Below are positions 1-63,796 of a stretch of 64,000 nucleotides of DNA, piece after piece. The stretch spans positions 781,747 through 845,746 of the forward strand of contig JAMWET010003618.1 of NCBI GenBank assembly GCA_024036415.1. Direction: 5' to 3'. The first letter of the stretch is position 1. Every line of letters begins with the position of its first letter. Origin of the DNA: Prochilodus magdalenae. Its lineage: Eukaryota; Chordata; Actinopteri; Characiformes; Prochilodontidae. The position numbers were made by a program, and so were the translations under genes. The notes under the pieces were generated by a model that had not been told where the DNA came from, did not search any database, and saw only the letters and a list, made by a program, of their open reading frames with translations.

Positions 1-461
1 TTACTGCGTACAGAGATACGTTTAAGCCTCAATTAGGTGCACGTTAACCTAGCCAAGGATAGCACTGAGCCTCGTGGGGATAGCTAGCCCTGGACATGTT
101 TGGTTAGCAAAGCCAAGCTTTATCGTGTCCGACCCGAGCTCAAGACCTCGCCTGTTCACCAGACACTCAGAATAACCGGTAAGCTAGCGGTTAGCCATTC
201 TGGCCAGCCGAACTTGTGGGAGACTGGACTATTAGCCTAGCCACCCCAAGCTAACCCCCGTCGCCCGAGCAGCCCCACCCGTGCCGTTGCAGAGAGAGGG
301 AGAGAGACAGAGCTTTTAGCCCAGTGAGGTTCAGTCACAAACTGAGGTGGGATTCTATTTTAAAACATTTTATTTTGCTCGAAAGAGTGAAGAGTGTGTT
401 TTATTTTCTGGGCCACAACGCATGCCAGCAACGAGTCCAGGCCTGCAACGAGTACTGAAGT
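1..461 (+). mobile_element. partial Ty3/gypsy LTR (window begins inside it)
   Basis: Positions 1-461 are the reverse complement of 17940-18810, which belongs to a complete solo LTR, apart from a ~400-nt segment present only in that copy. The match ends near AACGAGTACT; the next bases belong to reverse transcriptase (EAGLKVSLD), so LTR and mid-pol were joined by deletion of the 5' internal region including gag. Confidence 0.8.
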
Positions 462-1250
462 ACTGAACAAGAAGCTGGACTTAAGGTCTCGCTGGATATG
501 TGTCAGTTCTGTCAGCCCCGTGTCAAGTATGTGGGTCATAATGTGTCGGCCGAGGGCATAGCCACCGATCCCTCAAAGGTGGAAGCTGTCACCAACTGGC
601 CCCAGCCCTATGATATAAAGTCCTTAAGGTCATTCCTGGGGTTCTGTGGATACTATCACCGTTTCTTTGCCAATTACTCCTCCATCGTAAAGCCTCTAAC
701 AGACCTAACTCGAGGTTATGCTCCTTTAAGAAAAGAAAGGAAACCGAACAAAGGAAGAAACGTCCAGCATTTCAAAGAGTCCGAACCGTTTGGACAGAGT
801 TGGACGGAAGCTAGCACCAAGGTGTTTGAGCAGATTAAACAGTGTCTTACACAGGCCCCCGTACTGGCTTTTGCTGACCCAGACAAACCATTCATCCTTC
901 ATGTTGACGCTAGCCCAAGTGGCCTGGGAGCAGTGCTAAATCAAGAACATCAAGAAGGGCTGCGACCAGTCGCTTTCGCCAGCCGAGGATTGAGCAGTTC
1001 TGAGAGGAATTATCACATTCACCAGTTAGAATTCTTATCGCTGAAATGGGCAGTAGTGGATAAATTCCATGATTACTTGTATGGTGCCCGCTTCACTGTG
1101 AGGACAGATAATAATCCTCTCACCTATGTTTTGACTACAGCAAAGATAAACGCTATAGGTCATAGGTGGTTTGCAGCTTTGACAACCTATGATTTTGACA
1201 TTAAATACCGACCTGGAAAGATTAACATAGATGCTGACCTTCTATCCTGA
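462..1250 (+). pseudogene. Ty3/gypsy pol fragment: end of RT, RNase H
   Basis: The open frame starts mid-RT at LKVSLDMCQFCQPRVKYVGH, followed by SLRSFLGFCGYYHRFFANYS, both typical of the gypsy RT palm/thumb. RNase H follows (FILHVDASPSGLGAVLNQ, ELEFLSLKWAV-like block, TVRTDNNPLTYVL), ending IDADLLS and a stop. The catalytic YVDD portion of RT is missing, so the element cannot be autonomous. Confidence 0.88.
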
Positions 1251-7415: not shown

Positions 7416-8709
7416 TCCTTTCTCCCGCTGTCCAGCATCTGGGTCTGAGGAAAGAGCCTCTTTAAGAACCATCCGCTATGATGTCATACAACTGCAAGGA
7501 TCATCAGTCTCGTTTGACATCTCACCTGCTCACAACCTAGACAAGAGATTCAAAATTCATCCAGCATTCACTGCAGATGAGCTTGGTCTGTCTGAGCATA
7601 CCCCCCAGTAAAGGCTCTGACTGCAAAATACCATCACCTACAGGGTTTACCCCTGTGATCTATAGACAGAGTTCACCCAGTAGTACTTATTGGGTCAGAT
7701 TTCCCTCACCTGCTCCTTCCTACCCAGCCAGTCAGAGTCAGACCACCCATCAAACTTGGTTCATTTGACTACAAGTGATCAACAATGTCTCTTCACCACA
7801 GTCACGTCTCCTGCTTCTGATCTCCTGCGCCATGTAGAGAAACTGTGGCAATTAGACACACTGCCCTATGTTGGAAGGGAAGTTGTCACACGCTCAAAGT
7901 GGGATCAGCAAGCTCTGGCTCTTTTGGAACAACACACAGCCCAAGTAGAAGTGGATGGAATAAGGAGATACGCTACACCTCTTCTGAGGTGCAAGGACTC
8001 ACCACTCCTCAAAAAACCCACAACCGCCTGTCTTGCCTTATTACGGAGCACAAAGCGCCGAAATGCTAAAAATGCAAAGCAAGCCCAAGACTACCAACAA
8101 GAAATGGAGAAACTGGAGAAAAGTCTGACTAAAGTCATCATACAAGATCTGTGGAAGACAGAGATTAGCTGGGATGAGCTTCTCCCAGCTGGCTTGCTGG
8201 AGCAATGGAGAGATTGGGAAGCTGAGCTTGTGTACCTACCTTCAGTCGAGATCCCTCGATGCTATGTTCCCCCATGTACAGATAAAGAAGCAGCAAGTAG
8301 AGAGGCACATGTATTCTGTGATGCTTCCAAAAGGGTGTACGGGTCAGTAGTCTATCTTCGTACACAGTGTGCACAGAAGCATGTTCATTTGTCATTTGTG
8401 ACGGCAAGATCCAGGGTTGCTCCTCGCAAACAAATTTCAATGCCACGCCTAGAATTGTGCGCCGCAGTCACTGGAGCACAGCTGGCAGGAGTTCTTAATA
8501 CAGAGCTGGCCATTCCTGTCAGTGACATAACTATGTGGACAGACTCAACTACCGTACTGAACTGGATCCAGTCCGATTCATGTCGCTATAAGGTGTTTGT
8601 GGGTACCTGCATCTCTGAAATCCAGACTCTCACAGAGGTAACCAACTGGAGATATGTCAAAACGGCTGATAACCCAGCAGATGACCTGACCAAAGGAAAT
8701 GCACAGTAG
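7416..8709 (+). pseudogene. BEL/Pao pol remnant lacking the RT core
   Basis: Protease-region debris to ~7690 is followed by an open frame: LRHVEKLWQLDTLPYVGREV and VDGIRRYATPLLR (N-terminal RT region), then an abrupt join to DLWKTEISWDELLP, then the BEL-type RNase H block (AHVFCDASKRVYGSVVYLRT, MPRLELCAAVTGAQLAGVL, MWTDSTTVLNWIQ, NPADDLTKG). The RT catalytic region between KSLTKV and IIQDLW and all of integrase are missing. Confidence 0.85.
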
Positions 8710-13703: not shown

Positions 13704-14063
13704 GTGAGCCTCCGTCCATATTACATGCTGCGGGAGCTCTCACACGCCATTGTTGTCTGTGTTTACATTCCGCCTCGGGCGGAAGTGCAGGCGGCGTGTG
13801 ACGTCATTCACTCCACCGTCGCAGCGCTACAGACACAACACCCTGACGCATTCTATGTGATTTCTGGTGACTTTAATCACGTTACATTGGACTCTACCCT
13901 GCCTGCCTTTTTCCAGTTTGTGGACTGTCCCACCAGGAAAAACAGGACCATCGACCTGCTGTATGCTAACATGAGGGATGCATACAGGGCTACCCCACTA
14001 CCACCGCTGGGGACATCAGACCACAACCTGGTTTTCCTACAGCTTCAGTACAAACCACTGTAG
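13704..14063 (+). pseudogene. L2 LINE endonuclease (APE-type), C-terminal part
   Basis: VVCVYIPPRAEVQAACDVI, YVISGDFNHVTLDSTLPAFF, NRTIDLLYANMRDAYRATPL and GTSDHNLVFL are the GDFN and SDH blocks of LINE apurinic-type endonucleases. The catalytic N-terminal motifs are lost by 5' truncation. A frame change separates it from the RT. Confidence 0.88.
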
Positions 14064-14101
14064 AAGCCCTCAAGGACTGCTATGATACCACTGATTGGAG
14101 C

Positions 14102-15418
14102 GTGCTGCTGCACCCACACGGAGAGGACATTGAGGGGGTGACGCACTGTGTTACGGACTACCTGAATTTTTGTATGGATGTTGCTGTTCCCACAAAAACT
14201 GTACGCTGCTTCCTAAACAACAAGCCCTGGATTACCAGTGACGTCAAGGACATCCTCAACCAAAAGAAGAGGGCTTTCAAAGATGGAAACTGGACAAAGC
14301 TGAAGCGTGTACAGGGGGAACTCAAGGTTCGACTTAAAGAGGCCAAGGAGTCCTACAGGAAAAAGGTGGAAAGGAAGCTGCAAGACAACAACATGAAGGA
14401 GGTCTGGGGAGCAATGAAAACCATCACAGGCTGCAAGAACAGCAGCGGCAGCTCAGTAGATGGGGGTGTGGACAGAGCAAACCAGTTTAACAACTTCTAC
14501 AACAGGTTTGACTGTCCTGCTCCTGCTGCCCCTTCCTCCGACCCGCCTGCAGTATTCACCACCCTGTCTTCACCACCATCACCCTCACCTCCACCATCTC
14601 CGTCACCTTCACCACCATCACCCTCACCTCCACCATCTCAGTCATCACCACCACCAACACCATCATCAGCAGGAAGACAAAGCAACTCCCACAGTTCCCA
14701 CTGTCCCCCAACCTTCACGGCAGACCAAGTCAGGAGACAGCTGAGGAGACTACACCCCAGGAAGGCGGCCGGCCCAGACAAAGTGTGCCCCAGAATGCTT
14801 AAGGCATGTGCTGCCCAACTGGGGGAGCCCCTCCAACATGTCTTTAACCTGAGTCTACGTCTCGGGAGGGTTCCTGCCACGTGGAAGACAACCTGCCTCA
14901 TTCCAGTCCCCAAGAAGGCACACCCGAAGGAGCTGAATGACTACAGGCCAGTTGCTTTGACATCTCACGTGATGAAGACCATGAAGCGACTGCTGCTGAA
15001 CCACCTCAGACCTCAGGTCCACCATGCTGAGGACCCACTGCAGTTTGCGTACCGGGAGAAGGTGGGAGTGGAAGATGCCATCCTCTATCTTCTACACAGA
15101 GCTCACTCTCATCTGGACAAGGGGGGTGGTGCTGTGAGGGTCATGTTTTTCGACTTCTCCAGTGCCTTCAACACCATTCAGCCCCTACTACTGAGAGACA
15201 AGCTGATGAAGATGGAGGTGGACATGCACCTGGTCACCTGGATCACTGACTACCTCACCAGGAGACCACAACATGTCAGGATCAGGGACTGCTCCTCTGA
15301 TATGGTGATCAGCAGCACAGGAGCACCACAGGGGACTGCTCTCTCTCCAGTCCTGTTCACCCTGTACACATCGGACTTCAAGTACAACTCGGAGTTATGC
15401 CACATGCAGAAGTTCTGA
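14102..15418 (+). pseudogene. L2 LINE reverse transcriptase, N-terminal and palm
   Basis: The linker EDIEGVTHCVTDYLNFCMDV and NNKPWITSDVKDILNQKKRA is followed by an unusual Ser/Pro run (14560-14690), then RT motifs RKAAGPDKVCPRML, LNDYRPVALTSHVMKTMKR, DPLQFAYREKVGVEDAILYL, VMFFDFSSAFNTIQPLLLRD and GAPQGTALSPVLFTLYT. It ends at HMQKF because a single missing base shifts frame exactly at the catalytic F-x-DD box. Confidence 0.92.
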
Positions 15419-26056: not shown

Positions 26057-27651
26057 CAGTGGGGAAAATAAGTATTTAGTCAGTCACCAATTGTGCAAGT
26101 TGTCCCACTTAAAAAGATGAGAGAGGCCTGTAATTGACATCATAGGTAGACCTCAACTATGAGAGACAAAATGTGGAAAAAAATTGAGAAAGTCATTTTG
26201 TCTGATTTTTAAAGAATTTATTTGCAAATAATGGTGGAAAATAAGTATTTGGTCAATAACAAAAGTTCATCTCAATACTTTGTTGTATATCCTTTGTTGG
26301 CAATGACAGAGGTCAAACGTTTTCTGTAAGTCTTCACAAGGTTGGCACACACTGTTGCTGGTATGTTGGCCCATTCCTCCATGCAGATCTCCTCTAGAGC
26401 AGTGATGTTTTGGGGCTGTCGGCGGGCAACACGGACTTTCAACTCCCTCCAAAGGTTTTCGATGGGGTTGAGATCGGGAGACTGGCTAGGCCACTCCAGG
26501 ACTTTGAAATGTTTCTTACGAAGCCACTCCTTTGTTGCCCTGGCAGTGTGCTTGGTGATGCTGAAAGACCCAGCCACGTTTCATCTTCATTGCCCTTGCT
26601 GATGGAAGGAGGTTTGCACCCAGAATCTCACAATACATGGCCCCATTCATTCTTTCATGTACACGGACCAGTCGTCCTGGTCCCTTTGCAGAGAAACAGC
26701 CCCAAAGCATGATGTTGCCACCCCCATGCTTCACAGTTGGTATGGTGTTCTTTGGATGCAACTCCGCATTCACTTTCCTCCAAACACGACGAGTTGTGTT
26801 TTTACCAAATAGTTCTACTTTGGTTTCATCTGACCATATGACATTCTCCCAATACTCTTCTGGAACATCCAAATGCTCTCTAGCAAACTTCAGACGTGCC
26901 TGGATATGGACTGGCTTAAGCAGGGGGACACGTCTGGCACTGCAAGATCTGAGTCCCTGGCGTCGTAGTGTGTTGCTGATGGTAGCCTTTGTAACGTTGG
27001 TCCCAGCTTCCTGCAGGTCATTCACTAGATCCCCCCTTGTGGTTCTGGGATTTTTCCTTACCGTTCTTGTGATCATTTTGACCCCACGGGCTGAGATCTT
27101 GCGTGGAGCCCCAGATCGAGGGAGATTAGTAGTGGTCTTGTAGGTCTTCCATTTTCTGATTATTGCTCCCACAGTAGATTTCTTCACATCAAGCTGCTTG
27201 CCTATTGCAGATTCAGTCTTCCCAGCCTGGTGCAGGTCTACAATTCGGTTTCTGGTGTCCTCCGACAGCTCTTTCGTCTTCACCATAGTGGAGTTTGGAG
27301 TGTGAGTGTTTGAGGTTGTAGGCAGGTGTCTTTTATACTGTTAACGACTTCAAACAGGTGCCATTAATACAGGTAATGAGTGGGGGAAAGAGGAGCCTCT
27401 TAAAAAAGAAGTTACAGGTCTGTGACAGCCAGAAATCTTGCTTGTTTGTTATTGACCAAATACTTATTTTCCACCATTATTTGCAAATAAATTCTTTAAA
27501 AATCAGACAAAATGACTTTCTCAATTTTTTTCCACATTTTGTCTCTCATAGTTGAGGTCTACCTATGATGTCAATTACAGGCCTCTCTCATCTTTTTAAG
27601 TGGGACAACTTGCACAATTGGTGACTGACTAAATACTTATTTTCCCCACTG
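26057..27651 (-). mobile_element. complete Tc1-like DNA transposon (1595 bp)
   Basis: Both ends read CAGTGGGGAAAATAAGTATT inward, flanked by TA (26055-26056 and 27652-27653). The inverted repeats are about 205 bp with an internal second copy of AATAAGTATTTGGTCAA (IR/DR arrangement). The arms are still almost identical, suggesting a fairly young insertion. The transposase is encoded on the minus strand. Confidence 0.95.
26272..27286 (-). pseudogene. Tc1-like transposase, frameshifted, second catalytic Asp lost
   Basis: [20 protein letters not shown] begins the paired-like helix-turn-helix ([20 protein letters not shown]), followed by the bipartite DNA-binding part and DDE core. The first Asp is in [30 protein letters not shown] follows. 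At VFQH an 8-bp deletion, compared with the sister element at 30953-30990, removes the DND that carries the second Asp and shifts frame. The remainder ([20 protein letters not shown] with Glu, [20 protein letters not shown]) continues in another frame from 26577 to 26272. Confidence 0.93.
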
Positions 27652-30548: not shown

Positions 30549-32020
30549 CAGTGAGGAAAATAAGTATTTGAACACCTTGCGACTTTGCAAGTTTTCCCAC
30601 TTAAAAATCATGGAGGGGTCTGAAATTTTCATCTTAGGTGCCACTGTGTCCACTGTGAGAGACTTAAAAAAAATCCGGAAATGACAATGTATGATTTTTT
30701 AAATAATTTATTTGTGTGTTACTGCTGCACATAAGTATTTGAAAACCTTTGTTTGCAATTATAGAGGTCAAACTTTTCCCGTAGTTTTTCACCAGGTTTG
30801 CACACACTGCAGCAGGGATTTTGGCCCATTTCTCCACACAGATCTCCTGCAGATCAGCCAGGTTTCGGAGTTTGAGCTCCCTCCAAAGATTTTCTATAGG
30901 GTTTGATTTGCTTCTTACGGAGCCACTCCTTGGTTATCCTGGCTGTGTGCTTTGGGTCATTGTCATGTTGGAAGACCCAGCCACGACCCATCTTCAATGC
31001 TGTAACTGAGGGAAGGAGGTTGTTCCCCAAAATCTCGCAATACATGACCCCGGTCATCCTCTCCTTAATACAGTGCAGCCGTCCTGTCCCATGTGCAGAA
31101 AAACACCCCCAAAGCATGATGCTTCCACCCCCATGCTTCACAGTAGGGATGGTGTTTTTGGGATGGTACTCATCATTCTTCGTCCTCCAGACACGGAGAG
31201 TGGAATTAAGATCAAAAAGTTCTATTTTGGTCTCATCTGACCACAGAACTTTCTCCCATGACTCCTCTGGATCATCCAAATGGTCATGGGCAAACTTAAG
31301 ACGGGCCTGGACGTGTGCTGATTTAAGCAGGGGAACCTTCCGTGCAATGCATGACTTTAAACTATGACGTCTTGGTGTATTACCCACAGTAACCTTGGAA
31401 ACAGTGGTGCCAGCTCTCTTCAGGTCATTGACCAGCTCCTCTCGTGTAGTTCTGGGCTGATTTCTCACCTTTCTTAGGATCATTGATACGCCACGAGGTG
31501 AGATCTTGTGTGGAGCCCCAGTCCGAGGGAGATTGACAGTCATGTTTAGCTTCTTCCATTTTCTAATAATTGCTCCAACAGTAGATCTTTTTTCACCAAG
31601 CTGCTTGGCAATTGCCCCGTAGCCCTTTCCAGCCTTGTGGAGGTCAACAATTTTGTCTTTGGTGTCTTTGGACAGCTCTTTGGTCTTAGCCATGTTAGTA
31701 GTTGGAGTCTTACTGATTGTGTGGGGTGGACAGGTGTCTTTATGCAGCTAACGACCTCAAACAGGTGCTTCTAATTTAGAATAATAAGTGGAGTGGAGGT
31801 GGAGTTTTTAGAGGCGGACTAACAGGTCTTTGAGGGCCAGAATCTTTGCTGATTGGCAGGTGTACTTATTTGCAGCAGTGACACACAAATAAATTATTTA
31901 AAAAATCATACAGTGATTTCCAGGTTTTTTTTAGATTATGTGTCTCTTACAGTGGACATGCACCTAAGATGAAAATTTCAGACCCCTCCATGATTTCTAA
32001 GTGGAAGAACTTGCAAAGTC
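30549..32020 (-). mobile_element. second Tc1-like DNA transposon, right end truncated
   Basis: The left terminus is CAGTGAGGAAAATAAGTATT. The right inverted repeat is recognisable back to CTTGCAAAGTC at 32020, but the last ~30 bp are missing and BEL-derived sequence follows directly. It is related to, but clearly diverged from, the element at 26057. Confidence 0.92.
30757..31693 (-). pseudogene. Tc1-like transposase, frameshifted before the catalytic Glu
   Basis: [20 protein letters not shown] starts the helix-turn-helix region. The DDE core has both Asp ([27 protein letters not shown]). After WLRKKQIK about 35 bp are missing relative to the sister element, removing the WPSQSPDL peptide; the frame then reads [10 protein letters not shown] and stops at 30854. 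The true continuation ([28 protein letters not shown]) survives in another frame to ~30757. Confidence 0.92.
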
Positions 32021-32935: not shown

Positions 32936-32975
32936 AGACTGAATTATGGACAGAATATGCAGTGCCGCCTGTTTG

Positions 32976-33190
32976 AGGGTTTAGTCCGTCAGTGGCAACT
33001 CCGCTGTCCAGAAATTGGCACCTAGCGCTTCGCCATTCGTTTTTGTTTTAGTGGCGCCCACCACTTAAAACAAGCAACAGCTCCTGTGAACAAAGCACTT
33101 ACTCTGAACAGCGGCTACTTGGGTAGGCTAACTACAGCGGCACATCGTAGCTCCACCATCATGGAAAACGTGACGAAGTTGAATCAGTTG
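32976..33190 (+). repeat. left terminal inverted repeat of the 10.5-kb element
   Basis: Its two conserved blocks (32976-32997 and 33084-33182) recur inverted at the right end; the middle is diverged. Confidence 0.8.
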
Positions 33191-33226
33191 AAGGCTTTGT
33201 ACAGGTTAAATATAAATGCACTACAG

Positions 33227-34585
33227 GCTGCAAACTAAAGGCCAGTGGCACCTGTCGTTCGGGAGAGGCACTAGCTAAAGGCCAGTGGCACTAGCTAAAG
33301 GCAGTGGCACCTGTCGTTCAGGAGAGGTACTAGCTAAAGGCAGTGGCACCTGTGAGTCAGGAGAGGCACTAGCTAAAAGCCAGTGGCACATGTCGTTCGT
33401 GAGAGGCACTAGCTAAAGGCCAGTGGCAGCTGTCGTTCGGGAGAGGCACTAGCTAAAGGCCAGTGGCACCTGTCTTTGGTGAGAGGTAATAGCTAAATGC
33501 CAGTGGCACCTGTCGTTCGTGAGAGGCACTAGCTAAACGCAGTGGGACCTGTCATTTGGGAGAGGCACTAGCTAAAGGTCAGTGGCACCTGTCGTTCGGG
33601 AGAGGCACTAGCTAAAGGCCAGTGGCACTAGCTAAAGGCAGTGGCACCTGTCGTTCAGGAGAGGTACTAGCTAAAGGCAGTGGCACCTGTGAGTCAGGAG
33701 AGGCACTAGCTAAAAGCCAGTGGCACATGTCGTTCGTGAGAGGCACTAGCTAAAGGCCAGTGGCAGCTGTCGTTCGGGAGAGGCACTAGCTAAAGGCCAG
33801 TGGCACCTGTCTTTGGTGAGAGGTAATAGCTAAATGCCAGTGGCACCTGTCGTTCGTGAGAGGCACTAGCTAAACGCAGTGGGACCTGTCATTTGGGAGA
33901 GGCACTAGCTAAAGGTCAGTGGCACCTGTCGTTCGGGAGAGGCAATAGCTAAAGGCCAGTGGCACCTGTCGTTCGTGAGAAGCACTAGCTAAACGCAGTG
34001 GGACCTGTCAATCAGGAGAGGCACTAGCTAAATGCCAGTGGCACCTGGTGTTCGGAAAAGGCACTAGCTAAACGCAGTGGGACCTGTCATTCGTGAGAGG
34101 CACTAGCTGAATGCAGTGGGACCTGTCATTCGTGAGAGGCACTAGCTGAATGCAGTGGGACCTGTCATTCGGAAGTGGCACTAGCTAAATACCAGTGGGA
34201 CATGTCGTTCGGGAGAGGCACTAGCTAAAGGCCAGTGGAACCTGTCATTCGGGAGTGACACTAGCTAAACGCAGTAGGACCTGTCATTCAGGAGTGACAC
34301 TAGCTAACGGCCAGTGGCACCTGTCGTTCGGGAGAGGCACTAGCTAAAGGCCAGTGGCACCTGTCGTTCGGGAGAGGCACTAGCTAAAGGCCAGTGGCAC
34401 CTGTCATTCGTTAGAGGCACTAGCTAAAGGCCAGTGGCACCTGTCATTTGTGAAAGGCACTAGCTAAAGGCCAGTGGTACCTGTCGTTCATGAATGGCAC
34501 TAGCTAAACGCAGTGGACCTGTCATTTGGGAGTGGCACTAGCTAAAGTCCAGTGGCATCTGTTGTTCGGGAGAAGCACCATCTAC
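33227..34585 (+). repeat. subterminal minisatellite, ~34 units of about 40 bp
   Basis: The unit reads CTAAAGGCCAGTGGCACCTG then TCGTTCGGGAGAGGCACTAG, with frequent variants (ACGCAGTGGGACC, TCATTTGGGAGT). A 337-bp block beginning at 33281 is repeated almost exactly from 33618, a higher-order duplication. Isolated degenerate units occur at ~35175 and, inverted, at ~42840-42870. Confidence 0.95.
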
Positions 34586-35560
34586 AAGATTTTAGTCCCT
34601 CATGGACATCTGGCAACAGGAACTATGCGCTCCTAGTAGTGGCATCTATTATTACCTTAATACAGGCACGTACCAACAGCTCCTGCATGTAAAACAATGA
34701 CTATATGCTAACTACTGACATGTAACTTCACCATCAGATAAGGTGACAGATAACAGGTGTAATGTGTGTGTGTGTGTTTACAATAATGATATTTATTAAT
34801 AATGATAATTGCTTTTTTTATTTTTACTTTTGGACGATGTAGACAAATTTACTTAAACAGTTCATGTGTTCATGTTTTACTGAAGGCTATAATAATAATA
34901 AATAATAATAATAATAATAATTACTATTATTATTATTATTATACTTGTATGCTTTTATCCAAGGCAACTTGTATACATATTTACTTATTCGGGGTTCTGT
35001 TTATCGTCATATGCATTAAACACATGGTGAAATTATGCTTGTATTATTGCTTTTATTTTGTCATTGGTATATGTCATTGTTTGTTTATCAATCTTTAATT
35101 TCACAAACATTACCTTGAAGATTTGATGAATTATCACAATTTATTATTTAGGAATACTACCTTCTTTTATAGGCGTCTAGAAGTGAAAGGCACTAGCATG
35201 TGCATCTCAATTGTGGAACTAATGCTCCATTCAACAATGGCAGCTACTTTTTTTTTTTAATCATACAGCAAAACAAATTTTAAAAATTCAGCCTTATGTT
35301 GTTTATAAGTGAGTCAGTAAGGTTAACCCTCCCAAAAATAACAGTAAATCAAATTCCATACACACATCCATGTTGTCAGAACATTACATCTGTCGATGGC
35401 AGTGTCAGGTAATGTAGATTTTTTTGTTTGAGACCTACTACCCAAACCTATATATTGTATGGAATTTGTTTTTTTGTTGTTGTTGTTGTTGTAGTAATGT
35501 GCGATGTGTCGAACTTCAGCTAACGTCAGCTGTCGAAGCTAAAAACACCTAGCCATTACT
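34586..35560. other. AT-rich interior of the 10.5-kb element with (TAA)n
   Basis: Includes facing (AATA/AAT)n and (ATT)n runs at 34888-34942 that could fold on themselves, and a (TTG)n run at 35471-35492. No coding region. Confidence 0.6.
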
Positions 35561-37431
35561 GTTAAAGTGGCTGCTAGAAGTGCCAATAGGAATGGAAGTA
35601 AAACGAGCCTTCGGATCTGTAAAAGCTGATTCAGCTCGAGGGTTCCAAGCCCAATGCTTGGCATTACCTTTTAGTAGGAAAGTAAGAGTGCTGCGACAGA
35701 AATGCAATTACGAATAAATCGAAAGACGATAGAAATTTGCAAAACCTAGGAACCTCTGGAGATCCCAGACTTTGGAGCCAGCTAGTTCACAATGACATCG
35801 ACCTTACGGTCATCCATAACTACCTCTTCTGGACTAATGACGTAGCCAAGGAATGAGACTGAACTTAAATGGAATTCACATTTCTCGCCCTTCACAAATA
35901 ACTGATATTCGAGGAGACGAGTGAGTGCCAATGACTGGGGTGTGCAGAAGAGAGAGGTCCGACGAGGAACAGGAAATCCATGCTTTAACTGGTCCAACTG
36001 AATGGAAAGAGCTATTAGTTCGTCCCAAGGGTTCTTTACAAGCCAATGGGGTACATGCACACAGGGCTGGTGACGCATTTCCGCTAAAATCTCAGCCAAC
36101 TCAGCCACTTCCGCTATCCACACTGTTGTGTTGAGTTTAGGGAAATCGCGATAATGTCTCAAGCAAAGAAGTTTAAGTTTCAGCAAACTGACAGCGCTAC
36201 AGCTGAACATTGCTGTGTACCTTTATTTTAGGCCTCCAGTAAGTACAACAAAGTACCACGACTACACTTCAGCTCCGGATCCCGCTGATTAAAATTCGTT
36301 TCCTGATTATAAATATACAGTGCAACTTCAAAAATGAGAATATGGTGAAAAGGTTTTTGTTAAAGGGTCATATTTTATATTAATCACAAAGTTTATCGTT
36401 TGAATTTAATTATTAAAAGTGAACTTTTTCCATGATATTTGAATTTTTTGATGTGGTACTGTATGTATCACTACGTTAGCATTGGTTAGTAAACAAACAG
36501 TTTAGCCAAGAGCTACCATTACAAGACCGGATCTTACCTTCATAATTGTGGATGTAGCTTGAAATGTAGAGTTTGAAGCCCTTCTCTTTCATTGTTGCTG
36601 ACGTCTGACACGTCTGAATAATACGAGTGATATCGTTGACCGTAATCCTGGGCAAATCTGAGTGAGTGAAAAACGCCATAGCTGAGCTGTTTAGCAAGAC
36701 AGGAAGTGATGAAGCTGGCTGACTCAGAATGCGGAAGAGAGTGTATAGGCTATTGCCTGAGAATATCGGGATTGAGTCCGTTGCGGAAAATGGTTAGCAA
36801 CGTGGTCTCATTTCAACCGCTACCAGCGGCCATTGTAAGCAATTCTAGTGAATATTCGGCTACGGAACGATTACGTTAGCGAAGGCGATAATATCTAACC
36901 ATAGCATTTACCGTTATGAGAATGATCAAACACGGAATTGAACTCAAAAATGAAAATCATACGCATCATGCTCATAGACAGCCCAAACCGCAGTGGCCCA
37001 ATCGAAAGTCTGACCAGATAAAGGTGAAACGACATGGCAAAGAATTGGCAAAGTAAATGGAACACTGTAACAAGAAACCACGACACTGATTAGGCATCGA
37101 ACATATCTGGTTAGCTAAGTGGACCGAATTAGTGGTTGGACGAGCGACCAATGCATGATCAGTAGCAGATGTACTTACTGAGGGTTGGGCTATCTGAGAG
37201 AAGATACTTCCAAGGATAGCAAGAATTTAAGATAACAGAGAATGTTGTTCTGTTTGTTGCTGTGCCAGATTACCAACCGAGCTACTCAGGGATTCCAGCA
37301 GCTGCTCGTGTTGACCAAGAAGCTGATCCTGGGTGCTACTGGCCTGAAAAAAAATCTTTTAGCTCAGCCATCACTACTTATTTCGGCGAAGTATTTCTGT
37401 GACGATGAAAAAAAAAAAAAAATCGATGTGT
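35561..37431 (-). pseudogene. Ty3/gypsy gag-pol debris, minus strand
   Basis: At 35690-35930 the minus strand reads [20 protein letters not shown] then SFLGYVIS and, frame-broken, FIRNCISVAALL, a gypsy RT fragment. At 36890-37070 it reads LSGQTFDWATAVWAVYEHDA and VFDHSHNGK-like text typical of gypsy gag; near 37270 LLESLSSSVGNLAQQ. Large parts of pol are gone. This is a secondary insertion into the 10.5-kb element. Confidence 0.7.
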
Positions 37432-37824
37432 TGTGACGCGCGCTGAACTAAAAGCAAGGCAGCTTATTAAACAGGTTTGTACTAAAACACAGCAACACCA
37501 AGGAAATATAATCAGAGGGCTAAACCGAGTCAATAAACAGGCAAGAGTCAAACCAAACAGACAATCAGACCAGGCAGAGGTACCAAAGGGAATAAACAAG
37601 AGGAGTAAACCAGAGAATCAAAAATAAAGTCAAAGCAAGAGTAAGATCAAACAGAGAGAACGCTTGGTATGCTACAGAGTGGCAATACTTCGCAATGAGC
37701 CAGTGCGAGAGAGAAGAATTTAAGCAAAAAGACTAAGTAATGTCAGATGACTAATCAATATTCAGGAGACATGGAGATGGAGTCCAGGAGATCGAAGGTA
37801 AGAGGAGAACCAGCAGGCATGACA
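37432..37824 (-). mobile_element. 5' LTR of the minus-strand gypsy fragment
   Basis: 393 bp bounded by TGTGACGCG and GCATGACA (on its own strand TGTCATGC to GCGTCACA). It lies directly upstream, in the minus sense, of the gag-like debris. No 3' LTR partner is evident near 35560. Confidence 0.65.
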
Positions 37825-37943
37825 GTATGGCACATAACAGTTGTCCTTTTTGAAAACATTGATATTAACATATTTCTTTGATTAAAATTATATAATTCAA
37901 TTTATAAATACAATATAATATAAAAATATTTTTTAGGAAAACA

Positions 37944-40900
37944 ATGTCCAGAAACAAAAATCAACCCACTGCTCAGGACCAGCCTAATTCTAAACACCTG
38001 AAGTGTAAAATTTGCCATTCAAAATTCACCAACATTTCACATTTAAGATGACATGAAAAGACACAGAATAAAGAAAGGCAACCAATTACTTGTCACTCCA
38101 AAACACCAGCATCGACCAAGGGTGCCAGTTCATGTTTGCAATTTTGTGCTCTATCAGACAATGTCCTGTGAAGTAGACATTTGCAGAGGCCTCATGTTAG
38201 TCGCTTTAAAAAGCGGTAATCCTGGAATGGACTGCCAGCATTTGGAGAGGACAAACAAAGCATTGGCATATGGTATCTCAAGAACTACCAAACAAAAGGC
38301 AGATTCACAAGAGGTTTGGTAGAACAATTTAATTATTTTTCTGTTATTTTTTCTGTCAAAAAACTGGTGTCAGTTTGCAAGAACCCATGTTACCTTTGAT
38401 AGCCAGTCATGTCAATGGCATTGCCAGTGCAGAGTGAAGAGCAAAATGAGTTGCGTACATAGGTACCTTTCAGTGTGGTACATGTTTCAAGAACATCCAC
38501 ATCATCTCAAAGCAACAGCAGATTTAAATCTGGAGGACACTGATGATATAAAAGAAGAGTCACAGAACTTGAAAAACTCCCAAGGCAGTACAATGGAAAG
38601 TCTGCTGATGTCATTAAAATGACACAATATTTATGGAGAGAAAGGAAAATCCCAGAGGATCTCCCATATGACCTTGCCACAAAAGAACAGCAAATCCCAG
38701 AATCATTTAAGCCATTGGAGGTTGTATGTTCATACTGTCCTGGCCCTTGCCCTCCAGCTTTGGAATTGAAGCAGCTGCTGACAACACATGGGACAGTATA
38801 TTGCATTTTTTGTGAACAAAGGTTAGTTACACACATTTTTTAAATAAACTGATTTAAGCCACTGCTATTTAAATGACTAACTGCAGCTATTATTGAATTT
38901 TTCTAGGTGTTCCTGTTTATGTGAAGATGTGTCCAATTTGTAGAATGCTTGTGAGATTCCAAAATTATAAATCTGGGTTCCACAACTTCAATGACAGTCT
39001 TTCTGTCCCTTCCCTTATGCTCATTTATGACACCTGGACTTTCGGTAAGCACCTGAAAACATTAATATAAATTAATGTTTAATTAATGTTTTCATATTAA
39101 TGGTTTATTAATGATTCAGTTATTGCATGTAACATAAGAAATGCATGATATGTATTTAAGACACTTTTTTAAATTGTAATTAATATTATGCAGTGTGCCA
39201 GGCAAAGGTTTAGACATCAGGTACAGAGGTACAGACTCATCTATATCTATGGGTTTGGTTATCTTAAAGACTACAAGCTTTTACTTAACAGTTCATACTT
39301 ATGTCTGAAACATGTCCTGATATACTACATATACTCTTGATGTTTCACAGTATTATATTTCTGCCATATTTCCACTTCTAATATTTTAGTTTGCAAGAAA
39401 AAGGTCTATTCTGTATTATGGTACTGTATTTAATATAAATTTTCATTTACAGTATTCTACAAATACATTTTCTTGACAGAACCACATTGCAGTGGGCCGT
39501 TTCCTGACAACATTGGAAGATCATTGCAAAGTTATAATTCCTCACAATACAGTCAGATGTGCATTCTACCATTTTTGTGCAATGAGAAGTTTTTGATCGC
39601 TGTGGCCACATTGCACCCATTTTAATTGCAGATGCAAACAGGAAAACCGCATTTGATGTACGTGGTAAGAAAATATGAACAGTAGTCATTTCTTTTAAAA
39701 CATTAAAGCCCCCATTTTCATTGGAAATGAATATCTATAAGGAATTGGTTATAAAGACATTGTAGTTTTATTTAGACATGTCAGATATTATCATGAAAGA
39801 ATAACTTTTTTTTCTAGGTCTGCCTATCACTTCACCTCTTAAAGCTCACGACCACTGCCAATTCTAGTACAGAGGATATACGTATAAGTAAACGTTAAGA
39901 CAAGATAGGAGAGGCTACAAAAGGAAATTATAGCATCTGGTTTGTGTGATGGTGAGCTTTTAGGACGTTACTGTTCAGTGTATTGTGGAAATACAAGTCT
40001 GAAGTTTAGACTTATGGATATTATGGTTAAAATAGTGTCTGAAGCTGGATCCAGAAGTGACCTGATAAATGAGTTTGAAGAGCTTCTTCTTTACAAAGAT
40101 ATTTACCCTAAGAGGTTCATCAAACCGCAGAAAACTGGTGTTAAGGGCAGGGGTATTTAACTCTTTCAGTCATGCAGTCACAACACCAGTGATGTGTTGA
40201 GAAGCCTAAATCCACACTCAAGTAAGAGTGTTATTACTTCAATGAAAGTGAAAGCATGTTATTACAAAGACTTTTGTAAAAACACAAAAGTATTAGGTAA
40301 GCAACTTTAGTGCTGTGTAAATTATAGAATTGTAGTAGAACAAAATTTGTTAGGTGAAATTCTCCTGTTATTGGGGCACTTTTGGCCTAATGTTCAATTC
40401 AGAAGCTCTAAAGTGTTTTGAGCAGTAATAAAGTTTTTAGGAGCTAAATTATTATATACTAAATTATAATGACTAAAATGTCAGTCAGTGAAAGTAGATA
40501 CCATTTTTTCACAATCTTTTGTCAAAGTCACTGACCACTTCATTAGGTACACTTTCTTGCATCTAGGTGTAAATTAGGGGTAACAAGAAACAGATGAACT
40601 ACATTCTGTAATTGTACAACTACAAAATGTACCCATATGGCAGGTGACGCTGATAAAGACAATGAGTGTATATACCAGGTTGGGAGTGCTTAGTGAGTGT
40701 ATGTCTTTGTAGAAGTAGTATTATTTCAAAGTCAAAATCAAAATCCATAACAAATTTACTTTAGTGCATGGAACAAAGTACATGAAGCTGTATCTAGTTA
40801 TTACCCACCTCTGGTAGAAATTATGTTGTGTTTATGCTTCTGTCGCTTGCAAACGCATTTTGTTTTTGCAGTAATTCTGTAAAACTTTTATGAATAATTA

Positions 40901-41600
40901 TTACTTCAATGCTCATTTGTAATTGTGAATGATTGATGTTGTTGTGTGTCCAATTTATAACTATTATTCAGGTGGTGTTTTGCATATGGATTGTATACAC
41001 TGTTTACGAGTCAGCATTATGGTGGCAAGAGTCTGCCCGTGACCATGGGGATGCCCTCTTGAGTTTCCAACACCCTCCTACAGTCTACATTTCAGACATT
41101 GCTGGACGAGTAGCTCGTCAACATCACGTCAATAACCACACAAATCAATGCTTCTTCCAGCCAAATGATGAAAGACTCTGTGCTACTACAGAGAAAACCA
41201 TACAGGAAGCAACCAACAAATGTCTGCAAATACGTTTAGCCTGGGTTTCATGTATTGGCTTTACAAAGGAACCACAGCCACACAAGACAGTTCAGGAGAC
41301 CGGTTTTCCTGCAGTGACCCTGAAACTGGATCCAGTAATAGGCATTCACTGTATGACAGGTTCCACCACAAAAAATAATAAATAAATAAAAAAACCTGAG
41401 GAGCTATTGAGGAGTCTGAAGTTGGTGTCAGACCTGGCAGCTTTGGTCAGTTCATCTTTTGCTGAACAGATAAACAGAGAGCTCTCATTCAGCAAGTACT
41501 CATTTTCCCAGATGAAGGACATTCATTTCATGTTTTCCTTGCATCTTATTTCCACCTGCACAATCAGAGGATAAATAATAAAAAATGAAAGACATGCAAA
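37944..41600 (+). pseudogene. HMGXB3-like / KDZ-type transposase gene, broken, multi-exon
   Basis: Pieces in order: MSRNKNQPTAQDQPNSKHLK then a C2H2-like finger CKICHSKFTNISHL (37944-38050); SKMSCVHRYLSVWYMFQEHP (38430-38490); PEDLPYDLATKEQQIPESFK, VVCSYCPGPCPPALELKQLL and VYCIFCE (38640-38820); after AG at 38906, VPVYVKMCPICRMLVRFQNY then GFHNFNDSLS (38907-39044, GTAAGC donor); NHIAVGRFLTTLEDHCKVII and FYHFCAMRSF (39480-39670); CDGELLGRYCSVYCGNTSLK (39940-40160); YTVYESALWWQESARDHGDA then LLSFQHPPTVYISDIAGRVA (40985-41130); PVIGIHCMTGSTTKNN; PEELLRSLKLVSDLAALVSS then FAEQINRELSFSKY (41395-41510). The order matches, from memory, uncharacterised HMG domain-containing protein 3-like fish proteins. 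Stops and frame mismatches between exons show it is dead. Confidence 0.65.
40527..40700 (+). repeat. fragment of the foldback element family
   Basis: TGACCACTTCATTAGGTACA, AACAGATGAACTACATTCTG and AATTGTACAACTACAAAATG match the right arm of the element at 57100-57800; it sits in an intron-like gap of the HMGXB3-like pseudogene. Confidence 0.6.
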
Positions 41601-43228
41601 GGCAGACCAAAGAAATCTTGCAGATGGGCCCCAGTGGAAAACTTACATTTGGGACAGAAGGTACACTAATGCATACAGAGATTCATAAATGTTATACTTT
41701 TTAGTTATTGTTATACTTATTGTATTTATTTACTATATTAATAAGGGTTCATGTTAATGATTATACTGTAGAATACCTCTCCTGTACAGGAACAGTTCAT
41801 TTCAAACGTGCTTTTGTAGTTTTTAATAGGTCTTTTTTAATAAATATTTTGTCAGCAGTTTTACCCACATCTTTACAGTTACAGGCCATCAAAGAAAAAA
41901 GCTTAGCTGTCTTACAATTGGACAGGTAAATTCCACAGAACACCTCATTTGTTTTAGAGGTCGTGGCTCCAGAGGTATGGTTCAGTCTCAGTTAAGTAAT
42001 TACAGTGCTTGCAAGGCAAGTATTATTTCTATTACCTCTTATTGTTATGCAAGTATTCTTATGCTTTTTCTTCTCCCAAGTGCCCTTTGACAAAGAATAA
42101 TTTAACAAACATCAACAAACCCAAACACTAAGTTAGTTTTCTTTGCAAGCACTGTATGTATTTAAATTTTCAGCAAATGCATTTATTGTTATATTTAATA
42201 TTGTTATACTGCCAAAAAAGCCTACTGTTAAATGATTTATCCTTCGTCAAGATCACTATCCTGATGCTAAAGAAGCTGGAGGGTTTTAACAGATTTTAAA
42301 CTGAAATGATGTTCCCCAAACCTTTGTCATTTTAATGCCCTGTAGTCCATGCTTGAGTTGCTTTTGTTTTTTCATATCTTATCATATTTTTGTATAATAC
42401 TTGTTATTGAGTTCACATTTTAATCACAGTGCTTGCTTTTTACACATACTATACCATACAATTTCTACACGTTTTATATAACTTTGAGTATTCAATGATT
42501 TTCAAATACCATTAAGTCTTGTTGTTGCACTCTCTTAGATTAATTATTCTAGTAAAACATAAGCTGCAAGCTTGTAAGTCCACAATATTCATTTACAAAA
42601 TACATATGTACATTTTTCTACTTTAAAAGTTAGTGTTTGAGTGGCCTTAAAAAATGTTAGTTAATTGAATTTAGAATTGTAAATTAACAGTGTTTAAATC
42701 AGTGTTTTATACCCAAAAACATATTTCAATTTAAAATGCTTCAAAATATCCAGGCAGCCTGGACACTATTTTAAATATAAGACAACTTATAAACATATAT
42801 AACTATATAAACACATGCCAGTGTCTTTCACTGTAGTAAATGGCTAGTGCCACTCCTGAGCTGGACAATGCTGATGGCGAGTCGAGTACAGATGATCAGG
42901 GATCACTAATATATAAAAACTAATATAAAAACAAGAAGGCAATCCTCACTCATTAAGACTTTTAGATTAGCATGAATAACACATACTTGACTCAGTAAAG
43001 AGTATGAATTGGTACGAGTATATCTGTGTCATGTTTTCATTAAATATTTATGCCACAGTAAGCCTACAGCCTATAGTAAAGATTTATAATTTATAAAGAT
43101 TAAGAATTATTAATAATAACAAGCGTATGCCTAAAGTGGCTCCTTTCCCTTAGAATTATTCACCCAACGGTACAACAACAACAAAAAAAACCCACTACAT
43201 TAACTGTACAAAACCTTAAATCGATTTT
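41601..43228. other. AT-rich 3' interior of the 10.5-kb element
   Basis: No coding region. At ~42840 TGGCTAGTGCCACTCCTGAG is an inverted remnant of the subterminal unit. Confidence 0.5.
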
Positions 43229-43518
43229 CTCGTCACTTTTTCCATGACAGAGGGGCTACGATGTGCAGCTGTGTTAGCCTAAGCGAGTAGCCGCTGCTCA
43301 GAGTAACTACTTTGCTCACAGGAGCTGTTGCTGCGTTAATGCATGGCAGGTGTCACTGGCAAGTGCCATTAAACGAGAGGCGACATCGGCAAGTGCCACT
43401 CATTAACAAATATCGATGACAGGTGTCATTCGCGAAGTGGTACATGCCAATATGTGCCATTTCCAGACTCAGGAGTTGCCACTTCCTGCTGCCAGATGCC
43501 ACTGACGGACTGAACCCT
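43229..43518 (-). repeat. right terminal inverted repeat of the 10.5-kb element
   Basis: Inverted counterpart of 32976-33190, about 75 bp longer in the middle, where degenerate relatives of the 40-bp subterminal unit occur (AGTGGCACTTGCC, GACACCTGTCAT on the minus strand). Confidence 0.8.
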
Positions 43519-43546
43519 TGTGAGCTTGTTTGTTACCAAGCTCTAT

Positions 43547-43885
43547 GTTTTCTGACAGAGGCGGGTCTGATGACACTTGCCTGTGGGTTCATGTTGACAC
43601 AACGTATAGTTTAGCAGTAGGCAGTTAAAACTATGTCCATCCTTTATCAGCCATAAGGCACATCCGACCCATAGTATGAGGGATTCCTACATGTGCAGTG
43701 ATGCTTGGTTGATACCAAACTTTATGTTTTCTGACAGAGGAGAGTCTGATGATTCCATTTGACAATGGAATTATGTTGACACAATGTATAGTTTGGGCTT
43801 AAGTTTAAAACTATGTCCATCCTTTATTAATATTAATGCAAAATGGGATGTCCTGCCCACAGTATGACTCCTACATGATTTATAT
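43547..43885 (+). repeat. dispersed repeat copies 2 and 3, in tandem
   Basis: Two direct copies about 180 bp apart (ATGTTTTCTGACAGAGG at ~43547 and ~43725; AAAACTATGTCCATCC in each), matching 29598-29805. Confidence 0.65.
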
Positions 43886-48555: not shown

Positions 48556-63458
<14,903 letters not shown>

Positions 63459-63796
63459 CTGGAATTGAGACAGAGACAGAGAGGCTGTAAAATGAGAAAA
63501 ACAAGGCACCCAGAGAGCCACTTGGAAAACATTATGCATGAACCCTTGAATGTCCATAATAGTCTTTATTTATAAATTTTAAACAACATACAGCAAGCTG
63601 TGAATATGAATATATGCAATATGACAGCATACCAGTACACTGTATGTTTCTTATTTAAACTGTAATGTCCACTTATTCTCAAATCTGCATCATGGTATTG
63701 AAAACAAACCTCAGTATTGATATCTTTTTCACCAGCATAGGCCAGATACATTACATAAAACCAACTTTAATCTCCACAAACATTTTTGGCAATATA
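63459..63796 (-). other. auts2 intron
   Basis: Short pyrimidine stretch at the acceptor, then AT-rich DNA with nothing recognised. Confidence 0.5.

What the first reader, a model, noticed from the sequence alone, without database searches (positions are those of the whole stretch)
32976..43518. A 10.5-kb inverted-repeat element carrying an HMGXB3-like gene: candidate KDZ/Zisupton-class transposon
Seen: matching outer termini, a longer inner inverted block ~100 bp in from them, an asymmetric subterminal repeat array, and a broken multi-exon gene with Cys-rich CPIC and HNFNDS motifs between them. Known: I recall HMGXB3-like proteins being linked to KDZ transposases, and Zisupton as an ~11-kb fish element. 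Inferred: this is a decayed copy, later hit by a gypsy insertion. If correct it is a rare, poorly catalogued class with a clear end structure.
Basis: partly seen in the sequence, partly recalled or inferred. Interest (0 to 1): 0.8.

Follow-up and report, generated by a model that had tools for sequence, protein, structure and literature searches.

The report
Decayed Zisupton-type DNA transposon in fish
This is a broken copy of a large cut-and-paste "jumping gene" in a fish genome; better-preserved copies, insertion footprints and transposase relatives place it in the Zisupton group, on a branch with a different protein tail from the first one described.

The parts
32967..32974 (.). left target-site duplication GCCTGTTT
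   Evidence: 7/8 match to the right copy; related repeat units carry one 8-mer there
43524..43531 (.). right target-site duplication GCTTGTTT
32975..43523 (+). whole element, decayed copy (10,549 bp)
   Evidence: ends set by the duplications and by alignment to other copies
32975..33210 (+). 5' (A) terminal inverted repeat: outer 32975-33015, inner 33073-33210
43204..43523 (-). 3' (B) terminal inverted repeat: inner 43204-43332, outer 43459-43523, with an extra block absent from the A end
33235..34578 (+). subterminal array of a 40-bp unit (consensus GGCACTAGCTAAAGGCCAGTGGCACCTGTCGTTCGGGAGA), A end only
   Evidence: found at the same place in C7624 and C6658; proposed transposase-binding sites (inference)
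35601..37824 (.). extra sequence not aligned to the sister copies: patchwork of later repeat insertions
   Evidence: pol-like piece about 35785-35928 on - and another high-copy repeat about 36037-36222
38004..38066 (+). C2H2-finger remnant (CKICHSKFTNISHLR*HEKTQ)
   Evidence: sequence; C2H2 and BED hits below cut-off on the same exon of C6658
38068..38601 (+). N-terminal transposase exon remnant; SWIM-like CxCx7CxH at 38422-38460
   Evidence: tblastn with P0001 residues 128-340; the Cys/His columns are kept in at least 35 of 36 rows; no SWIM profile hit
38601..39044 (+). CxC4 region remnant (two exons), with CSYCPGP, CPIC and HNFND motifs
   Evidence: tblastn; Pfam CxC4 19.3 bits on 38897-39070, under the 26.9 cut-off
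39480..39660 (+). exon with the first Asp motif (ILIADANRKTAFDV)
   Evidence: tblastn; aligned column D517 of P0001
40035..40184 (+). SAP-region remnant
   Evidence: tblastn with P0007 residues 261-305; SAP over its cut-off in C6658
40990..41579 (+). exon with the second Asp (VYISDIAGRVAR) and the Glu (FAEQINREL) motifs, frameshifted
   Evidence: tblastn; columns D728 and E848
41735..41762 (.). junction where about 3.1-3.2 kb (Ulp1-like and PHD-like exons of the sister copies) is missing
42252..42296 (+). remnant of the last coding exon (ITILMLKKLEGFNRF)
   Evidence: ORF compared by eye with the C-termini of P0003 and P0010; not found by tblastn at E <= 1e-3

Best explanation
[not shown]
Confidence: 0.9

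Rival explanations
1. A host gene (HMGXB3 or a paralogue) with introns, with inverted repeats beside it by accident.
For: Some homologues are named 'HMG domain-containing protein 3' or '3-like'; the gene has many exons.
Against: Several copies share both ends and lie at unrelated sites, with 8-bp duplications and empty sites; C7624 is mostly 88-95% identical to three other copies in long blocks, and the window copy is broken.
Confidence: 0.01
2. A hAT-, P- or Mutator-like element (also about 8-9 bp duplications) that acquired a CxC4 domain.
For: hAT and P also make about 8-bp duplications (PMC12730594; PMC3706591; passages). A BED finger, recalled as common in hAT, scores 17.4 bits in the C6658 reading, just under its 20.6 cut-off, and hits 1 of 46 homologues. 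The best fold match is ISCth4, recalled as IS256-family, relatives of Mutator.
Against: No hAT, P or MULE catalytic domain among the Pfam hits, nor among the 25 of 32 families shown; P0003 aligns over residues 11-796 with the Xiphophorus Zisupton-type protein.
Confidence: 0.04
3. The HMGXB3-like clade is a KDZ branch that deserves a rank of its own beside Zisupton.
For: Clade of 15 rows with 100/100 support, apart from the 21 rows with the Xiphophorus protein (97/99); PHD-like tail instead of CxC7.
Against: Same domain order through CxC4, SAP and Ulp1, same 8-bp duplication length. No Kyakuja, Dileera or fungal sequence was available to set the rank; the tree is rooted at the midpoint next to a very long branch (P0011).
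Confidence: 0.25

Closest known systems
Zisupton of platyfish (Xiphophorus; UniProt G3KL21 as cited in PMC12062965)
   Different: About 29-31% identity; a PHD-like finger (below cut-off) where P0039 has a weak F-box hit and CxC7; separate clade. Whether platyfish Zisupton has a 40-bp subterminal array was not checked.
KDZ elements of fungi (Kyakuja, Dileera, fungal Zisupton)
   Same: CxC-type cysteine cluster that Pfam describes as KDZ-associated; Dileera and Zisupton make 8-bp duplications (PMC12730594).
   Different: PF18758 not hit; Kyakuja makes 7-bp duplications and has no inverted repeats (PMC12730594). No TET/JBP gene was looked for.
ISCth4 (transposase, PDB 6xgx/6xg8)
   Different: 11-12% identity; the model has a SAP-bearing stretch between the first and second acidic residues; membership is not claimed.
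HMGXB3 (vertebrate gene)
   Same: Name that annotation gives to some homologues; link to KDZ recalled.
   Different: No HMGXB3 sequence was fetched; the element is repeated, has inverted ends and duplications.

Membership tests
Zisupton superfamily (KDZ) | Transposase homologous to the Zisupton protein | tested here: met
   P0039 equated with Zisupton through its CxC7 coordinates (against PMC12062965)
Zisupton superfamily (KDZ) | 8-bp target-site duplication | tested here: met
   3 of 3 copies with both termini; empty sites; rule from PMC12730594
Zisupton superfamily (KDZ) | Terminal inverted repeats | tested here: met
Zisupton superfamily (KDZ) | Large element with a multi-exon gene | tested here: met
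   10.8 and 12.9 kb copies; P0003 residues 7-1278 map in many pieces on C6658; splicing itself not shown
Zisupton superfamily (KDZ) | KDZ-associated cysteine cluster | tested here: met
   CxC4 33.8 bits, cut-off 26.9, in C6658; 42 of 46 homologues; 19.3 bits in the window
Zisupton superfamily (KDZ) | Pfam KDZ transposase domain PF18758 | tested here: inconclusive
   No hit, nor in the 25 of 32 families shown; but the Zisupton-type P0039 is not hit either and the control rang nowhere
Platyfish-type Zisupton family (narrow sense) | F-box and CxC7 C-terminus | tested here: not met
   Full-length P0003 carries only CxC4 in the precomputed Pfam list; CxC7 in 2 of 46 homologues at E <= 0.01, P0039 and P0051; P0039 lies in the other clade, P0051 was not in the tree
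Kyakuja | 7-bp duplication and no inverted repeats | tested here: not met
   8 bp and long inverted repeats; rule from PMC12730594
hAT / P / MULE | Their catalytic domains in Pfam | tested here: not met
   None among the hits (25 of 32 families shown); a BED finger comes just under its cut-off
DDE transposases | RNase-H-like core | tested here: met
DDE transposases | Three acidic residues forming one active site | tested here: inconclusive
   D517, D728, E848 conserved; their geometry in the model was not measured
Dileera | Grouping with Dileera transposases | not tested
   No Dileera sequence was fetched

The most novel reading that the evidence does not exclude
Vertebrate Zisupton-type transposases are DDE enzymes whose RNase-H core is split between its first and second acidic residues by a stretch of about 165 residues carrying a DNA-binding SAP domain. 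They carry a second enzyme, a Ulp1-like protease, with branch-specific tails (PHD-like in this branch, F-box/CxC7 in the platyfish branch). This would place in the DDE world a superfamily that a 2013 paper listed with Helitron and Crypton as lacking a DDE transposase (PMC3706591, passage).
Probability: 0.6. Interest if true: 0.6.

Novelty: new member of a known kind. Interest (0 to 1): 0.45.

Why it matters
The family comes with exact ends, 8-bp footprints, empty sites and short related copies, so it is a well-defined example of the Zisupton superfamily. It also gives a concrete model of the transposase: three named acidic residues with a SAP domain between the first two, which can be tested by mutation or structure. 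The shared architecture with differing C-terminal tails suggests that these elements exchange such modules.

Tried and rejected
Host-gene reading: rejected through paired-end copies, duplications and empty sites.

First structure job (A2, 11 rows, P0007): pLDDT 39.7, not used. Second job (A5, 46 rows, P0001): pLDDT 80. Foldseek against PDB gave no match at E <= 0.001; the second-look aligner placed the core.

PF18758 in the own genome: nothing, and the control rang nowhere. CxC4 in the own genome: 2 matches, on C7069 and C4955, neither in the copies described; the search is exon by exon. A noise-level hit to DDE_Tnp_2 (11.8 bits, cut-off 20.2) on one frame of C6658 was not pursued.

First alignment of C7624 empty sites mixed strands; repeated with the right strand. 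Direct repeats of 20 nt or more in 35300-38000, as LTRs would give: none. The TGGCA density was compared with the interior only, without shuffles.

Rows dropped: 10 of 56 proteins were left out of A5 (P0014, P0025-P0028, P0043, P0046, P0054-P0056); 10 of the 46 were too short in the core for the tree, which has 36 plus the C6658 reading.

Open-paper searches: HMGXB3+transposase 1 paper, about synteny with TIGD6; HMGXB3+domesticated 3, listing only apart from that one; KDZ+transposase+SWIM+SAP 0; Zisupton+Ulp1 0; Zisupton+RNase H 7, listing only except passages on Zisupton in PMC5718144. Searches were further listings. The founding Zisupton paper and the KDZ paper are not held, so I cannot say what they report about fold or ends. 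Repbase could not be searched.

Full report
Observation. The inverted ends, inner block, array and broken gene are all present at the stated places. Left against right end gives a Smith-Waterman score of 151, against at most 34 in 500 dinucleotide shuffles and at most 41 in 104 window pairs of the same spacing.

Other copies. A search of the window's own genome (1.18 Gb, 7,790 contigs) with the left end gave 15 matches, including pairs in opposite orientation on C4629, C7624, C6658 and C5698. A second search with a sister copy's 5' end gave 26 matches, with the same pairs plus a short pair on C7430. C4629 (10,844 bp) and C7624 (12,926 bp) have both termini. C6658 has both inverted repeats but a damaged 3' terminus; C5698 is an element of about 1 kb with a diverged left terminus. 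C2987 shows only the 3' end. C1708 has the same outer flank as the 3' end of C7624 and is probably the same insertion assembled twice. C7624 is mostly 88-95% identical to C4629, C6658 and C2987 in long blocks, with a few blocks at 70-86%; the window copy is 74-86% identical to C7624, with single blocks of 90-92% to C4629 and C2987. So the window copy is on the whole older or from a diverged subfamily.

Footprints. Reading the ends suggested 8-bp duplications; a script confirmed 8/8 for C4629, 7/8 for C7624 and 7/8 for the window. By chance a best-of-25-register match of at least 7/8 comes up in about 1% of random pairs and 8/8 in 0.1%. C4629 and C7624 share the same terminal register; the window's left terminus is about 4 nt shorter. 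Stronger evidence is the empty site. The joined flanks of C7624 match six uninterrupted repeat copies, of 9 matches in all, the other three being the two sides of the insertion itself and C1708. All six carry one TATACAC[AG] where the insertion has two. The joined window flanks gave 12 matches, two of them the window's own flanks. Four of the other ten were aligned: C1073, two units on C2193, and the neighbouring unit in the window itself. They carry one copy of GCTTGTTT or a form one base off; on the left side the similarity covers only about 20 nt.

Gene. ORFs of the sister copies and of the window encode pieces of one protein. A spliced reading of C6658 finds 11 homologues, 10 from fishes and one from Opistho-2, recalled as a unicellular relative of animals. 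Profile searches bring the total to 56 proteins, nearly all named ones from fishes. A carp-family protein of 1,284 aa (P0003) maps piece by piece from residue 7 to 1278 on C6658, while the window keeps residues 12-772 in broken frames and a trace of the last exon. The gap between window positions 41735 and 41762 corresponds to about 3.1 kb in C4629 and 3.25 kb in C7624, which carries the Ulp1-like and PHD-like exons. Domains in the C6658 reading: CxC4 33.8 bits and SAP 24.7 bits, both over cut-off; PHD, BED and C2H2 below cut-off; no hit for the Ulp1-like pieces. Among 46 homologues at E <= 0.01: CxC4 42, SAP 18, Peptidase C48/Ulp1 8, PHD 3. A SWIM-like CxCxnCxH motif is kept in at least 35 of 36 rows, though no SWIM profile was hit.

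Relation to Zisupton. P0039 from Xiphophorus hellerii is 1,393 aa long with CxC4, Ulp1 and CxC7 (1333-1391) over cut-off and weak SAP and F-box hits. [quoted passage not shown] I therefore take P0039 as a Zisupton protein; this is an inference from coordinates. P0003 aligns with it at 31% over 805 aa, E 1e-106; P0001 at 29% over 785; exons of C6658 at 29% over 459 aa and 31% over 248 aa; the window itself only weakly, E 5e-10 and 1e-6. In a 37-row tree the C6658 reading lies in a 15-row clade (100/100), apart from the 21 rows with P0039 (97/99); the root is a midpoint next to one very long branch. Against: PF18758 hits neither branch, although PMC9297572 aligned the original Zisupton with PF18758 sequences (passage). 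That paper found no duplications for its nematode elements; PMC12730594 gives 8 bp for Zisupton. PMC3424704 notes that genes derived from Zisupton exist in fish and other vertebrates (passage); whether HMGXB3 is one was not tested.

What has happened to this copy. Frames are broken by stops and shifts, the Ulp1/PHD-like exons are gone, and 35601-37824 is extra. In the 146-aa ORF there, residues 99-146 match frames elsewhere that are open for up to 1,697 aa, while residues 1-60 match another high-copy repeat, once inside a frame of 1,762 aa (150 matches scored of 669 candidates). 'Gypsy insertion' is thus partly right; pol-like identity rests on those frames and on a recalled motif, since Pfam gave no RT hit.

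Host. P0028 (Prochilodus magdalenae) lies on a contig of 60,866 bases, the length of own-genome contig C7069, which also carries a CxC4 match. The window is therefore probably from Prochilodus magdalenae (inference).

Verdict. It is a family of a known superfamily that I could not match to any named one; whether Repbase already lists it could not be checked.

Noticed in passing
window 459-1250, 7684-8709, 13970-15418: Retroelement remnants: RNase H domains of a reverse transcriptase, Pao peptidase A17, and a reverse transcriptase domain, all over Pfam cut-offs. Described only.
   Followed up: partly
window 26516-27340 (-), 30854-31747 (-), 54936-55838 (+): Three Tc1/mariner-type transposase ORFs with Tc3/Sleeping Beauty-type HTH or DDE_3 domains.
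   Followed up: partly
window 48556-49824 and 62929-63531, strand -: Long open frames that resemble AUTS2-family proteins from recall; Pfam gave no hit at E <= 0.001. The element would lie downstream of that gene.
   Followed up: partly
window 43524-43800 and C1073, C2193 of the own genome: The element sits in a unit of a tandem/dispersed repeat; a second unit follows directly in the window at about 43690.
   Followed up: partly
own genome C4955, C5164, C7069, C6680/C5214 (L028, L030, L031, L033, L034): Further relatives of the catalytic exon at 41-71% identity, four of them in open frames of 232-243 aa, so several such families may live in this genome.
   Followed up: no
L016 (C5698:392423-393457) and L058 (C7430:1405338-1407099): Short elements with parts of this family's ends facing each other, about 1.0 and 1.8 kb: likely non-autonomous derivatives.
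   Followed up: partly
   Followed up: partly
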